Positions 11,899 through 52,916 of a stretch of DNA of 63,358 nt are shown here, piece by piece. The notes under the pieces were generated by a model. It worked only from the letters and a program-made list of their open reading frames with translations. It did no database searches and was not told where the DNA came from. Each line of letters opens with the position of its first letter. The first letter of the stretch is position 1. Source of the DNA: Methanothrix sp. (GTDB lineage Archaea; Halobacteriota; Methanosarcinia; Methanotrichales; Methanotrichaceae); NCBI GenBank assembly GCA_029907715.1, contig JARYLI010000008.1:1-63358 (forward strand). The letters run 5' to 3'. The position numbers were made by a program, and so were the translations under genes.

Positions 11899-11976
11899 AT
11901 GAAAAATGTCTTTCCGTACTGGATAGGTGTTCTCGCAGTAGCATGCGCAGCCATGTTTGTATCAGGTCTGCTGTGA
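11899..11976 (+). CDS. Small single-span membrane peptide, 25 residues
   Basis: The ATG at 11899 is preceded by a strong ribosome site (GGAGGTTTGTGAT at 11883-11895) and a TATA box at the right distance. The product has a short MKN start, aromatic residues (FPYW) and an 18-residue hydrophobic segment (GVLAVACAAMFVSGLL). It would span the membrane once with almost no soluble part. No neighbouring gene runs in the same direction close by. I do not recognise it. The combination of promoter, ribosome site and membrane segment argues for a real micro-protein rather than chance. Confidence 0.6.
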   Translation: MKNVFPYWIGVLAVACAAMFVSGLL

Positions 11977-12285: not shown

Positions 12286-12352
12286 AGCCCGAGACCCCGA
12301 TTTTGGGCCAGAGAGGTCTTAGAGATCTGCGCCGAACAGCCCCGCTGCGACC

Positions 12353-12366
12353 GAAAGATTTATATT
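12353..12366 (+). promoter_or_regulatory. TATA/BRE promoter of a putative small RNA
   Basis: CGAAAGATTTATAT is a strong archaeal BRE-TATA match. Transcription is expected to start near 12388, immediately before a perfect hairpin and with no downstream gene on this strand. Confidence 0.6.
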
Positions 12367-12387
12367 CGACTATAGACGTAAGCGGAT

Positions 12388-12456
12388 GTGGCAAAAGTCG
12401 TACCATTTTTCCTCCCTCCTACATCCCAGACGACTTTTGCTCCCTCCTTTCATTTT
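12388..12456 (+). ncRNA. Candidate small RNA with C/U-rich anti-Shine-Dalgarno loop
   Basis: The predicted transcript begins with an 11-bp perfect stem: GCAAAAGTCGT at 12391-12401 pairs with ACGACTTTTGC at 12430-12440. The 28-base loop contains TTTTTCCTCCCTCC, and the tail after the stem contains TCCCTCC and T-rich TTTCATTTT. Exposed CCUCC-type sequence could pair with GGAGG ribosome sites, as in several known regulatory RNAs. The aroD gene converges on it from the other side. A minus-strand reading is also possible: GGAGGGAGGAAAA before an ATG at 12406 opens a 44-residue basic frame, which I find less likely. Confidence 0.5.
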
Positions 12457-12489
12457 CGCCATATCTAGAGACTGCGCTTCACTTCAGCA

Positions 12490-13170
12490 TCATCTCGCCC
12501 CCAGGCACCTGAGAGCGGTATCCAGCTCCCTGATGCTCATCTGCCCCGGTGCAGTGGGCTCTGTAACATAGCCGTAGGTCAGCACAGAGCCATAGAGGGG
12601 GGCCACAACCCTCAGATGCCTCCCAACAGCGCCCATGCCGATCACGCAGATGGGATGTGATTCATCCAGGAGAATTCTCAGGAGATCCAGCGCCTCCCGC
12701 ATGGAGCGCGGGGTGACGGCTATCTTCACCACATCAGCGCCCGCGCTCCTGGCGTCCTCTATTATGGCCTGCACGTTCTCCGGCACGCCGCTGAAGTCGT
12801 GGTATGATACAAGAGCAGGGCATGAGATATTCTCCAGCAGCTGATCCCTCCCTGGCGCCATCAGCTCGATGTCGATGATATCGGAAAAGCGCGATGCATC
12901 CATGAGAACACCTATCCGTCGCTCCTCAGACCCCCTGAAGGAGCCGCCCTCTGATGGGATGCGATTCGTGGCCATAAGTGGCAGCGATACTGACGCCCTT
13001 ATGTCTCTGATCACATCTGGATCCTCGAGAAGATCGAGACGCACCTCTATTATGTCCGCCCCCTCTGACTCGGCGCTCCTTGCTGCGCGCTCCGCATCTG
13101 CCCCGAGCGAGGCGACGATCGCAGGGGTTCGGATCCTCAGGCCTCCAAGATCAACCGTTCTGCTGCACAT
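12490..13170 (-). CDS. aroD: 3-dehydroquinate dehydratase, type I
   Basis: A 226-residue TIM-barrel enzyme that converts 3-dehydroquinate to 3-dehydroshikimate in aromatic amino acid synthesis. The catalytic His is in VSYHDF and the Schiff-base Lys in VVKIAV; the barrel's ESEGADIIEVRLDLL strand is typical of archaeal AroD. It lies 35 bases downstream of 3-dehydroquinate synthase, which makes its substrate, so the two form an operon. The 3' end faces the small-RNA candidate. Confidence 0.92.
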   Translation of the reverse strand: MCSRTVDLGGLRIRTPAIVASLGADAERAARSAESEGADIIEVRLDLLEDPDVIRDIRASVSLPLMATNRIPSEGGSFRGSEERRIGVLMDASRFSDIIDIELMAPGRDQLLENISCPALVSYHDFSGVPENVQAIIEDARSAGADVVKIAVTPRSMREALDLLRILLDESHPICVIGMGAVGRHLRVVAPLYGSVLTYGYVTEPTAPGQMSIRELDTALRCLGAR

Positions 13171-19327: not shown

Positions 19328-19336
19328 GTTTATATC
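19328..19336 (+). promoter_or_regulatory. TATA box of the PAN gene
   Basis: GTTTATATC is centred about 27 bp before the ATG at 19359, predicting a leaderless mRNA and deciding that start over an in-frame ATG at 19266. Confidence 0.6.
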
Positions 19337-19358
19337 GTTGAAGATCGAAGATGCAACC

Positions 19359-20591
19359 ATGAGTGAATCGTCAGCTATGACGGATCAGGAAAGCCTGATC
19401 GAGTCGTTCACCAAGAGGATCGCAGCGCTCGAGAGGGAGAACAGGGCACTGGCTGAGGAGGCCGAGGCCCTCCGCATGGAGCGCGAGGAGGCCAGAGCGA
19501 AGCTCTTCGAGTCTCTCATATCCAACAAGAAGTATCTGCGCGAGCTTGAGCGTCTTAAGAAGGAGAACGCTCTGCTGAGGCGCATGCCGCTGTTTCTGGC
19601 CACAGTGATAGAGGTGGGCGACGACTACGTCATGCTCAGACAGCATGGGAACAACCAGGAGTTCATAACCACAGCTCCTCCGGAGATAATGGAGAAGCTG
19701 CAGCCGAACAGCAGGGTTGCAATAAACAACTCCCTGACGATAGTGAGACTCCTGGAGAGATCTGTGGATGTCAGGGCGAAGACAATGGAGCTGATAGAGG
19801 CTCCGAATGTGACGTATGATGATGTTGGAGGTCTCGACGCTCAGATACAGGAGATACGCGAGACCGTTGAGCTTCCGCTGACAAGGCCGGAGCTCTTCAG
19901 CAACATAGGAATAGAGCCGCCCAGGGGGGTGCTCCTCTACGGGCTCCCGGGCACCGGCAAGACACTCCTTGCCAAGGCTGTTGCGCACCATGCCAGGGCA
20001 ACGTTCATACACATGTCGGGAAGCGAGCTGGTCCACAAGTTCATCGGAGAGGGCGCACAGCTGGTGAGGGACATATTCCAGATGGCAAGGGAGAAGGCAC
20101 CATCAATAGTCTTCATCGATGAGATAGACGCTGTGGGAAGCATCAGGACGCACGACGGCACAACAGGCAGCGCAGAGGTCAACAGAACCATGATGCAGCT
20201 CCTGGCCGAGATGGACGGCTTCCGGGAGAGAGGGGATGTCAAGATAATCGCTGCAACAAACAGGATAGACATCCTGGATCCAGCTCTCCTCCGGCCTGGC
20301 AGATTCGACAGGATCATAGAGATACCAATGCCCAATGAGGTCGCGAGGCTGAAGATACTTGAGATCCATACGAGAAAGATGAAGAAGGCCGATGATGTCG
20401 ATCTCTCAGCCATAGCGAAGCAGACGGATGGAGCGAGCGGCGCTGAGCTGAAGGCCATTGCTGTCGAGGCCGGAATGAACGCGATACGGCGAGAGGCCAC
20501 TGTGGTCAACATGGATGACTTCAGACAGGCCGTGAAGAAGGTTATGGGTGAGGAGGAGAAGACCGACGAGTCTCTCAGGATGTTCTACTGA
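19359..20591 (+). CDS. pan: Proteasome-activating nucleotidase (PAN)
   Basis: A 410-residue AAA ATPase that unfolds substrates for the 20S proteasome. It has an N-terminal coiled coil (about residues 15-80), an OB-fold segment, Walker A GLPGTGKT (about 195-202), Walker B IVFIDEIDAVG and the second region of homology ([17 protein letters not shown]). The C-terminus reads RMFY. The canonical proteasome-docking HbYX tail has Tyr in the penultimate position; here it is Phe, a conservative change. The gene has its own promoter and no close neighbours. A second AAA unfoldase, Cdc48, is encoded at 36462. Confidence 0.95.
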   Translation: MSESSAMTDQESLIESFTKRIAALERENRALAEEAEALRMEREEARAKLFESLISNKKYLRELERLKKENALLRRMPLFLATVIEVGDDYVMLRQHGNNQEFITTAPPEIMEKLQPNSRVAINNSLTIVRLLERSVDVRAKTMELIEAPNVTYDDVGGLDAQIQEIRETVELPLTRPELFSNIGIEPPRGVLLYGLPGTGKTLLAKAVAHHARATFIHMSGSELVHKFIGEGAQLVRDIFQMAREKAPSIVFIDEIDAVGSIRTHDGTTGSAEVNRTMMQLLAEMDGFRERGDVKIIAATNRIDILDPALLRPGRFDRIIEIPMPNEVARLKILEIHTRKMKKADDVDLSAIAKQTDGASGAELKAIAVEAGMNAIRREATVVNMDDFRQAVKKVMGEEEKTDESLRMFY

Positions 20592-23987: not shown

Positions 23988-25241
23988 TTACGTGTGTTTT
24001 ACTATAATCACCATCAATATTAACACCATTAATAAAATAAATATAATAATATATTTAACTCTTGTTTTCCAGAGTTCATCTTTAATTGCACCGTAAATCG
24101 GACCTAGAATTATACCAAATATACTAAGAGCTAATAATATATGGTTGCCCCATCTTTCCCAAAAATCTTTTACTACAATCTCGTCATCTTTAAAATGGAA
24201 TCGTTTTTTAAAAAGATAATCATCTGATATTATCGTAATAGCTGGCAGTGAGAACATTCCACTTTTGTTGAATTTCAAATATTCCTCTATATTTATTACT
24301 TCATTGTGATCCAACGAAACATTTTCAAACTTATTTTGATCCACATACTCACAGTAATCTGTATCTTCAAAGACTACTGTAATATTTTGGGTCCTATTAC
24401 CCATACCACCCAAATAAGATATATCATATATTATTCTAACAATATCGTTTTTGGAGATGTCTTTTTGATTGATGTTTGCACCAACTTCAAATAGCGGTTC
24501 TGGTGGATTTATATCGATTTCTGTACTGTAATCCATATCAGCAAACGAAACATCATAAAACCTGAGTGTGGTCTTGATGTTGTACTTCCTTGTATCATTG
24601 GGCTTAACGGCGTACCAGTATAAAAGTCTTGATGGTTTCTGGAGCCGCAGGTCTCCAAATGTTATCAGATGCTTTTTTGGGTCATATGAAAATTTGAAAC
24701 TATTTTCATAATCAGTCTCATTGATCTCAAAGATTCCATCAGAGGCGCTATTTTGACATATACTGAGGTCACCCCCCGTTAACACCTCATAAATCCTGGA
24801 TATATTTTGTACATACAAACCCCTATCAATATTCTCGTGGATCCACAACCCTTTTATCTCGTCGGACGTAGCAGGTATTAACTCAGTAAATACAACTAAG
24901 GTATCCCCAGGATAATAACCATCATCGCTATAAAATCTTCTTCCCGGACATAGATATACAACTTTGTTTATTTTAATTGGATCACCTGCTTGATAGTACT
25001 GCCTTTCGATCGTTCTTGCTGTCGTTCCTGAAGATATAGAGATTGATGGGCTTGCAGCAGGAACTGCCTTAACAGCGGATTTTTGCTCAGATATGCCATA
25101 AACAATTCGATCCAATTCTTTTGTCTCTTCTGCAGTATAACGCAGTGACAAAGCTACTGGAGAGACCATCAGTAGTATCAACAACACATATATAATAATT
25201 TTTGAGTAAATATGCGTATTATCTACATACATCGCATCCAT
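23988..25241 (-). CDS. Unknown exported or membrane-anchored protein, AT-rich island
   Basis: A 417-residue protein with an N-terminal signal or anchor (IIIYVLLILLMVSPVALS), a long extracytoplasmic region with several N-glycosylation sequons (NIS, NET, NDT, NRT, NIT, NVS) and two C-terminal hydrophobic segments, the last followed by VKHT. Base composition is far richer in A and T than the flanking genes. It overlaps the end of the upstream gene by 23 bases, so they are likely one transcript. I recognise no domain. The pair looks like laterally acquired surface proteins. Confidence 0.65.
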   Translation of the reverse strand: MDAMYVDNTHIYSKIIIYVLLILLMVSPVALSLRYTAEETKELDRIVYGISEQKSAVKAVPAASPSISISSGTTARTIERQYYQAGDPIKINKVVYLCPGRRFYSDDGYYPGDTLVVFTELIPATSDEIKGLWIHENIDRGLYVQNISRIYEVLTGGDLSICQNSASDGIFEINETDYENSFKFSYDPKKHLITFGDLRLQKPSRLLYWYAVKPNDTRKYNIKTTLRFYDVSFADMDYSTEIDINPPEPLFEVGANINQKDISKNDIVRIIYDISYLGGMGNRTQNITVVFEDTDYCEYVDQNKFENVSLDHNEVINIEEYLKFNKSGMFSLPAITIISDDYLFKKRFHFKDDEIVVKDFWERWGNHILLALSIFGIILGPIYGAIKDELWKTRVKYIIIFILLMVLILMVIIVKHT

Positions 25242-26517
25242 TTAAAATCCCCCACACATTTGTCGTGGTTGATCGTATATCTGCTGCTGTACAGCTGTAG
25301 CAACTACGCGATTGGTTGATAATACAACTATTGATACCACTTCTATTTCTTTCGACTATTCTATACAGATTGCTATTGTTGTAAATTCTATTAGTACCAC
25401 TTATATTTATATTTTGGCTGAATTGAACACCTATTAAGCAATTTATTGTGTTTGAATAAATAATATTGCGTTCAACTGTATTTCTAAATGAGTCATTAAA
25501 AAATATAAACCCATCCGATGAATAAATAATATTATCCGAGATAATACTGTCGTTTAATTTGTCTGTACAAATTGCCTTGGTATAATGATCACTTCCTGAA
25601 GATTCCGGCGTCCTAATTGTAACCCCGCTTATTAGGATTCGCGAGGAGTTGCCGAGCTCAATTCTCCCGAATATTTCCGGCTTACTATCTGCAACAGCGG
25701 ACTTAATAGAGAGATCATGTACACCCTCTATTTTTACGTCACCATCATACCTGCAGCCGCCAGGAAGCAGATAAATCTGCGTATTGTTTTTGACATAACC
25801 ATTTATATTATCACGGCAATTCAAATATACACAAGCTCTGTTTACAGGAATAACTTTTCTATACGAACATCTTGCACCATTCGATCTCAAAACATCGACT
25901 TGGAGATTCGTATCATTATCTCCAGCATTCCATATTATGCTCGGAGTGCCTTGGCCACTTACAATACCATTACCATTCACAGACCATTGATATGTTGCAT
26001 CGTTTATATTAGAGATTTCAGCTCTCAAGTTAGTTTGATTTACACAGTGTGTATTATCTGAGACGATTATGTCCAAAAATGGACATCGAGACTGGAGAGG
26101 CAGTCCGACTACTGCACGACCTTTGGGTATGGTAGACATAATGCCAAATACCCATTTTAGTTCGTCACCTCGTCTAACAGTATAATTTTTTAATTGCCAC
26201 TCCGTACCTATAAACTCACACTGGAAAACATTATTTTTGTAGAATTTCATATATGTAAATGGTGCATCTTCCTTCCACCATCCAAACGTGAAATCATTGA
26301 TATCTTCCGTTACATTCAACTTAATGCAAACTTCTCCTCTGCGTATTTCCTGAAGATCTATCGTATAATTATAAGTATTTTTGGTATTATCATAATAACT
26401 GTTCCAACAAATATCATCGCAGCACTCGATTTCGTACGGTTCCTGACCATGTGTCATAAAAGGATATGCGTATATAAAAAATATAAGTAGTAATATCATA
26501 TATATAATAAATTGCAT
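25219..26517 (-). CDS. Secreted parallel beta-helix protein with Ig/PKD-like domain, AT-rich island
   Basis: From the ATG at 26517 this is a 432-residue protein with a signal sequence (IIYMILLLIFFIYAYPF). An N-terminal cysteine-containing region is followed by a PKD/Ig-like stretch (YQWSVNGNGIVSG) and a C-terminal region of repeated short strands (ISDNIIYSSDG, VERNIIYSNT) typical of right-handed beta-helix (NosD-like) surface proteins. There are many N-glycosylation sequons and a Cys-rich tail (CYSCT, CDVCR). The open frame extends upstream, but those codons look non-coding. It is AT-rich like its neighbour. Ligand and function are unknown. Confidence 0.65.
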   Translation of the reverse strand: MQFIIYMILLLIFFIYAYPFMTHGQEPYEIECCDDICWNSYYDNTKNTYNYTIDLQEIRRGEVCIKLNVTEDINDFTFGWWKEDAPFTYMKFYKNNVFQCEFIGTEWQLKNYTVRRGDELKWVFGIMSTIPKGRAVVGLPLQSRCPFLDIIVSDNTHCVNQTNLRAEISNINDATYQWSVNGNGIVSGQGTPSIIWNAGDNDTNLQVDVLRSNGARCSYRKVIPVNRACVYLNCRDNINGYVKNNTQIYLLPGGCRYDGDVKIEGVHDLSIKSAVADSKPEIFGRIELGNSSRILISGVTIRTPESSGSDHYTKAICTDKLNDSIISDNIIYSSDGFIFFNDSFRNTVERNIIYSNTINCLIGVQFSQNINISGTNRIYNNSNLYRIVERNRSGINSCIINQSRSCYSCTAADIRSTTTNVWGILNGCDVCR

Positions 26518-52733: not shown

Positions 52734-52916
52734 GGGGCTGTGGCCTAGCCAGGTAGGGCGACGGGCTCCAGCGGTATGATTTGGATGATGAGCAACGGGT
52801 CTGCTGAGCCATCTCGACGGGGATGGCGTTGATGATCCGTTGGAGCACTGAGAAGATCATGTGTTCTCAGAATCGGAGAGACCCGTCGATCGTGCGTTCG
52901 AATCGCACCAGCCCCA
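52734..52916 (+). tRNA. tRNA-Trp (anticodon CCA) with a 109-base intron
   Basis: Exons 52734-52771 and 52881-52916 join after position 37 to give acceptor GGGGCTG/CAGCCCC, anticodon stem ACGGG/CCCGT around CTCCAGA (anticodon CCA) and T-arm GTGCGTTCGAATCGCAC, discriminator A. The canonical position of the intron fits removal by the archaeal splicing endonuclease at a bulge-helix-bulge. It starts 4 bases after tRNA-Lys. Confidence 0.93.
52772..52880 (+). ncRNA. Box C/D guide RNA within the tRNA-Trp intron
   Basis: Box C ATGATGA (52785-52791), D' CTGA (52804-52807), C' TGATGA (52830-52835) and D CTGA (52848-52851) are all present. The guide before D' (ACGGGTCTG) pairs with CAGACCCGT around position 39, and the guide before D (TTGGAGC) pairs with GCTCCA; the rule of five nucleotides upstream of the D boxes picks C39 and C34. 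This matches the known euryarchaeal intron that directs 2'-O-methylation of its own tRNA. Confidence 0.88.

What the first reader, a model, noticed from the sequence alone, without database searches (positions are those of the whole stretch)
12353..12456. Candidate trans-acting small RNA with an anti-Shine-Dalgarno loop (first)
A strong TATA promoter with no gene behind it leads straight into an 11-bp perfect stem with a 28-base loop rich in UCCUCCCUCC, plus a further UCCCUCC in the tail. These runs are complementary to GGAGG ribosome sites such as those before several genes in this window. Known regulatory RNAs in bacteria and in Methanosarcina block ribosome sites in this way.
Basis: partly seen in the sequence, partly recalled or inferred. 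Interest (0 to 1): 0.65.

Follow-up and report, generated by a model that had tools for sequence, protein, structure and literature searches.

The report
Multicopy archaeal small RNA, CCUCC loop
The hairpin is one of a previously uncatalogued family of very short archaeal RNA genes, present in 3 to about 20 copies in every acetate-eating Methanothrix relative examined and as a single copy in many related methane archaea, and it probably regulates messenger RNAs through a C-rich loop, although its targets are still unknown.

Summary
In detail: a BRE/TATA promoter (12352-12365) lies 31 bp before an 11-12 bp hairpin (12390-12441) whose 28-nt loop carries UCCUCCCUCC, with UCCCUCC again in the tail. 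It is far more than chance. The window's genome has five paralogs (all five in 5 of 6 genus genomes, four in the sixth), with hairpins 96-100% identical inside diverged flanks. A covariance model finds members in 50/50 genomes of the family (Methanotrichaceae-like, 11 genera, several to ~20 copies). A second model finds one copy per genome in three other families of the class, and none outside the class among 393 genomes of the phylum. Six of 11 stem pairs show two-sided changes (cells with such changes: 0/500 shuffles as high), and G·U far exceeds A·C (69 vs 10), so the plus-strand RNA is what is conserved. A palindrome CGNY-N4-RNCG lies between TATA and the start in most members. 72/80 Methanotrichaceae loops and 50/80 tails carry CCUCC. 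Rfam has no match. The 'small RNA' reading is strongly supported. The anti-Shine-Dalgarno mechanism is plausible but unproven: no specific target was found, and outside Methanotrichaceae CCUCC is only partly kept while AUCCC is kept. Best analogue: Listeria LhrC (works like; not homologous).

The parts
12352..12358 (+). BRE-like element CGAAA plus two bases before the TATA box
   Evidence: Conserved CCGAAA upstream of the TATA box in the family
12359..12365 (+). TATA box TTTATAT, 31 bp before the stem
   Evidence: TATA at 29-34 bp in 71 of 76 Methanotrichaceae hits; minus-strand control lacks it
12367..12378 (+). Palindrome CGAC-TATA-GACG between TATA and start site: proposed shared operator
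   Evidence: CGNY-N4-RNCG at this place in 57 of 77 members vs 0.5% of shuffles; TATA plus palindrome only 4 times in 463 kb, one of them this site
12388..12390 (+). Predicted transcription start (inferred from TATA spacing)
   Evidence: Inference; constant TATA-to-stem distance in the family
12390..12401 (+). 5' arm of the hairpin, GGCAAAAGTCGT
12402..12429 (+). 28-nt C-rich, G-poor loop with UUUUUCCUCCCUCCUACAUCCCA
   Evidence: loop motif statistics; near-identical in 6 genus genomes
12430..12441 (+). 3' arm of the hairpin, ACGACTTTTGCT
12441..12460 (+). Pyrimidine-rich single-stranded tail with a second UCCCUCC (12441-12447) and T-rich end; probable 3' end of the RNA
   Evidence: Tail 83-89% identical between genus orthologs while non-coding flanks are mostly 26-46%; CCTCC in 50 of 80 tails
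12490..13170 (-). Neighbouring convergent gene, type I 3-dehydroquinase (not part of the RNA)
   Evidence: Pfam DHquinase_I E 9.7e-44

Best explanation
The locus encodes a 60-75 nt non-coding RNA of a new, ancient archaeal family. A strong BRE/TATA promoter starts the RNA at or within about 2 nt of the hairpin. The RNA is one 11-12 bp stem of near-constant sequence (GGCAAAAGUCG...CGACUUUUGCC), a 20-45 nt unpaired C/U-rich loop and a short C/U-rich tail. The constant stem protects the RNA and is probably a protein handle. The loop and tail (UCCCUCC, ACAUCCC) are the active part and act in trans by pairing with G-rich stretches of mRNAs, most often the GGAGG ribosome sites, so lowering translation. 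Members share a palindromic element just downstream of TATA, so they are probably switched together by one repressor-type regulator and act additively. Shown by computation: the family, strand, structure, promoter, palindrome and loop motif. Inferred: transcription itself, the handle, the regulator, and the ribosome-site pairing.
For: Five paralogs per genome with exact stem arms and controls at zero. Hairpins 96-100% identical in diverged flanks. Covariance model hits in 50/50 family genomes and 11 genera, and one copy per genome in three more families. Two-sided changes at 6 of 11 pairs; cells with two-sided changes 0/500 and pairs with them 3/500 shuffles as high, slid controls far lower. 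G-U 69 vs A-C 10 in 54 distinct stems, so the plus-strand RNA is selected. TATA at 29-34 bp, absent on the other strand. Palindrome in 57/77. CCUCC in 72/80 loops vs 12.9 expected and in 50/80 tails; loops only 6% G. Ribosome sites with GGAGG are used here (13 vs 4-5 of 109). Loops are predicted unpaired. Masking of ribosome sites by single-stranded sRNA regions is known in Methanosarcina mazei (PMC3510493, PMC5867862).
Against: No direct transcript evidence. Loops do not pair better with 5' leaders than shuffles keeping the CCUCC block (350 genes in 21% of one genome). No conserved extended target for the A/B loop in six whole genomes. The exact complement GGAGGGA is not enriched at ribosome sites. 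In the Methanosarcinaceae-like family the loop is AUCCCCUCUAGUUCUCGUCAUA, nearly invariant across several genera, with no CCUCC, which fits a single fixed partner (RNA or protein) better than general ribosome-site binding. The conserved stem sequence is unexplained by pairing alone.
Confidence: 0.55

Rival explanations
1. The RNA is a protein-binding decoy: the C-rich loop and tail are repeated binding sites for an RNA-binding protein (the mirror of CsrB/RsmZ), so that many copies titrate it.
For: Short repeated motif in loop and tail, constant stem, many additive copies under one promoter type; no mRNA target found; loop of the single-copy family nearly invariant over several genera.
Against: No protein candidate; loop sequences around the motif differ between paralogs yet each is conserved on its own across the genus, which suggests distinct partners. 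M. mazei precedents pair with mRNA (PMC5867862).
Confidence: 0.22
2. The loop pairs with a stable RNA or the ribosome itself (for example rRNA or another ncRNA) and controls ribosomes globally rather than chosen mRNAs.
For: Conservation of loop cores (AYAUCCC, CCCCUC) across families without conserved mRNA sites.
Against: Not tested against rRNA here; paralog loops diverge more than a common rRNA partner would suggest.
Confidence: 0.13
3. The inverted repeat is a DNA element (operator or small mobile element) and not an RNA.
For: Inverted repeat with sequence-conserved arms in many copies, some in tandem.
Against: Wobble bias (69 G-U vs 10 A-C) and two-sided changes at 6 of 11 pairs need a single-stranded RNA of defined strand; conservation extends to a promoter at fixed spacing and the tail; same loci in the genus genomes.
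Confidence: 0.03
4. Minus-strand transcription: the G-rich strand is the leader (GGAGG...ATG) of a short gene.
For: Minus strand of the window copy reads GGAGGGAGGAAAAATGG; GGAGG followed by NTG occurs in 32 of 80 members.
Against: No TATA at matching distance on the minus strand; the SD-ATG arrangement of copy A is not kept in the other paralogs of the genus; wobble bias favours the plus strand.
Confidence: 0.02

Closest known systems
LhrC1-5 of Listeria monocytogenes (PMC4132741)
   Same: Five homologous multicopy sRNAs with repeated CU-rich UCCC motifs in loops and single-stranded stretches; promoters share an element and one regulator (LisR); motif pairs with mRNA and blocks translation.
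   Different: Bacterial; two stem-loops; regulator and targets known. No homology is claimed; here one stem with a constant sequence, an archaeal promoter, and a palindrome downstream of TATA.
sRNA162/sRNA171, sRNA154 and sRNA41 of Methanosarcina mazei (PMC3510493, PMC5867862)
   Same: Archaeal intergenic sRNAs; single-stranded regions mask ribosome binding sites.
   Different: sRNA162 is 191 nt with three stem-loops and found only in Methanosarcina; sRNA154 is described as highly conserved in Methanosarcina. The present family is ~60-75 nt with one stem, and the models give no clear hit in the large-genome genus g38 taken to be Methanosarcina.
Nine cold-induced conserved sRNAs with a 'cold box' of Methanolobus psychrophilus (PMC5378194)
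   Same: Multiple conserved archaeal sRNAs with a shared promoter-linked motif.
   Different: Their sequences are not in the text that could be read here; genomes taken to be Methanolobus have only one copy of the present family (1-2 hits), and the cold box is reported upstream of the promoter.

Membership tests
Rfam families (release 15) | Score at or above a family's gathering threshold | tested here: not met
   No match at the locus in the window nor in nine loci from the class
Structured RNA family defined here (R1/R2) | Stem GGCAAAAGUCG/CGACUUUUGCC with covariation | tested here: met
   Window hit 72 bits, E 2.2e-18 (the window copy was in the seed); unseeded hits in other genera and families; covariation
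Structured RNA family defined here (R1/R2) | TATA box 29-34 bp upstream of the stem, same strand | tested here: met
   Window spacing 31 bp; family statistics
LhrC-type multicopy CU-rich sRNAs (works like) | Several homologous copies per genome with repeated UCCC motifs in unpaired regions | tested here: met
LhrC-type multicopy CU-rich sRNAs (works like) | Shared promoter element for one regulator | tested here: inconclusive
   Shared palindrome found; regulator unknown
LhrC-type multicopy CU-rich sRNAs (works like) | Motif pairs with mRNA ribosome sites and represses translation | tested here: inconclusive
   No enrichment over shuffles in 350 leaders; no extended conserved site
M. mazei sRNA162/154/41 families | Homologues in Methanosarcina | tested here: not met
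C/D or H/ACA guide RNA | C/D boxes with kink-turn, or H/ACA hairpin with ACA | tested here: not met
   No Rfam match at the hairpin; boxes not seen in the sequence

The most novel reading that the evidence does not exclude
A class-wide archaeal RNA (single ancestral copy, amplified to 5-20 copies in the acetate-specialist Methanotrichaceae) forms a dedicated regulon of constant-stem, variable-loop 'plug-in' sRNAs under one shared operator, in which each loop is a separate guide carried by a common protein handle. This would be an archaeal counterpart of the multicopy CU-rich sRNAs of Firmicutes, evolved independently.
Probability: 0.35. Interest if true: 0.75.

Novelty: new variant of a known kind. 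Interest (0 to 1): 0.64.

Why it matters
Few archaeal sRNA families are known beyond single genera, and none of the papers found here describes one in Methanothrix, a major aceticlastic methanogen. A multicopy family conserved across a whole class, with a shared promoter palindrome and covarying stem, gives a ready Rfam-type family, a computable target question, and an entry point to post-transcriptional control in methanogens and anaerobic methane oxidisers. Its apparent weakness or loss in the genus taken to be Methanosarcina may explain why work on M. mazei did not reveal it.

Tried and rejected
Bare UCCUCCCUCC count as evidence: rejected, not rare. Promoter as a general regulon marker: CGAAANNTTTATATTCG with up to 1 mismatch marks the RNA loci plus the promoter of a putative archaeal ATPase operon, the latter without the following palindrome. 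Target prediction by duplex energies: no signal over motif-keeping shuffles. Extended complement of the A/B loop in six genomes: only the RNA genes themselves plus hits at the control level. FilI/FilR two-component paper of Methanosaeta harundinacea searched for a palindrome or sRNA link: none mentioned.

Full report
Observation. The RNA folds at -14.1 kcal/mol, z -5.6, 0/200 shuffles as good. The C-rich 10-mer alone is not rare, but the arm-loop-arm composite has an expectation of zero in the window. The only nearby downstream gene is convergent, a type I dehydroquinase ending at 12490.

A five-copy family in the genus. A search of the window's own genome gave a second copy, and the genus search gave more. 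The pattern GCAAAAGNCG-N15..45-CGNCTTTTGC finds exactly five loci in the window's genome, five in four of the other five genus genomes and four in one, with zero in the reversed-pattern controls. Each has the promoter CCGRAANNYTTATATTCGAC at the same distance. Loops differ between paralogs but are nearly identical between species. Within each orthologous set the hairpin is 96-100% identical and the promoter 92-99%, while most flanks are 26-46% (higher flanks lie in or near genes, e.g. downstream of copy A). In the genus, the promoter string with up to one mismatch occurs almost only at these loci; the other place found in all six genomes precedes a putative archaeal ATPase operon and lacks the continuation GAC.

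A class-wide family. A covariance model of the hairpin alone (R1) hits all 50 genomes of the family in 11 genera, 3-16 matches each at E <= 1, some of them the same hairpin read on the other strand. Best hits per genome range from 1e-17 to 2e-6, and detailed listing gives up to about 20 in one genome, several in tandem arrays each with its own promoter. In the wider class R1 finds exactly one copy per genome in three further families. Model R2 from those finds them in 94 genomes outside the window's family, including ANME-2- and Methanoperedens-like ones (names inferred), and in none outside the class among 393 genomes of the phylum. In the Methanosarcinaceae-like family 31 copies share a neighbour family containing a DUF2117 gene, so they are probably orthologs. 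The large-genome genus g38, probably Methanosarcina, has at best a decayed candidate (E 0.009).

RNA, and which strand. On 45 distinct stems, 95.6% of cells are standard pairs; 6 of 11 pairs have two-sided changes, 13 cells (0/500 shuffles as high), and every slid control is far lower. Over 54 distinct stems there are 69 G-U and 10 A-C cells. On the opposite strand every G-U becomes A-C, so selection acts on the plus-strand RNA. This speaks against a pure DNA element and a minus-strand leader. TATA boxes lie 29-34 bp upstream in 71 of 76 Methanotrichaceae-like hits and are missing at that distance on the other strand. With the usual archaeal spacing (established knowledge) transcription starts at or within 2 nt of the stem.

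Shared control. Between TATA and the start most members carry a palindrome CGNY-N4-RNCG (for example TCGTCAATTGACGTA): 57 of 77 against 0.5% in shuffles. TATA plus this palindrome occurs four times in 463 kb of genus sequence, one of them this locus. Its place, over the initiation region, suggests a repressor; the protein is unknown (inference).

Loop and tail. In 80 Methanotrichaceae-like members loops average 30 nt with 6% G; CCUCC is in 72 loops (12.9 in shuffles) and in 50 tails; the commonest longer core is UCCCUCCUACAUC. In relatives the loop keeps AUCCC, with CCCCUC or CCUCC. CCUCC is the classical anti-Shine-Dalgarno string, and GGAGG is used at ribosome sites here (13 of 109 near-unique ATG starts against 4-5 in controls). 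But loops did not bind 350 leaders better than shuffles that keep the CCUCC block, and no conserved long complement exists in six genomes. Short-seed pairing with many mRNAs is therefore the leading but unproven mechanism; a protein decoy or rRNA/ribosome partner remains possible.

Comparison. No Rfam family matches. By anatomy it works most like Listeria LhrC1-5 (multicopy, UCCC in loops, common regulator; PMC4132741), with no homology claimed. M. mazei sRNA162/154/41 mask ribosome sites (PMC3510493, PMC5867862) but differ in length, fold or distribution. A cold-induced group in Methanolobus (PMC5378194) could not be compared in sequence. It is a new RNA family; as a kind, it is a variant of CU-rich trans-acting sRNAs, notable for its constant stem, amplification, shared palindrome and depth of conservation.

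Confidence. That this is a real plus-strand structured small RNA gene: about 0.95. That it acts by pairing with mRNA ribosome sites: about 0.5-0.55.

Noticed in passing
window 52734-52916 with 52781-52853 (+): A tRNA gene whose match spans 183 bp contains an Rfam sR3 C/D-box match inside it: probably an intron-encoded C/D guide RNA in a tRNA (the known archaeal pre-tRNA-Trp arrangement).
   Followed up: no
window 11899-11976 (+): Possible 25-codon membrane peptide MKNVFPYWIGVLAVACAAMFVSGLL preceded by GGAGG in the same intergenic region.
   Followed up: no
window 19328-19420 (+): TATA box followed by the loose palindrome (CGTTGAAGATCG) ahead of an apparent short leader and ATG; may be a chance match or a protein gene with the same operator type.
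   Followed up: no
window 24001-26000: GC drops to 0.35 against about 0.55 around it, as for a recently acquired segment.
   Followed up: no
L157, L170, L175, L201, L207 (other genera): Tandem clusters of three or four copies of the RNA gene, each with its own promoter, about 110-300 bp apart in most cases.
   Followed up: partly
L299 1501-1571 (G208): Possible decayed ortholog in the genus taken to be Methanosarcina: loop AUCCCCUCUA...UUUUCAUA kept, stem changed and weak (E 0.009).
   Followed up: partly
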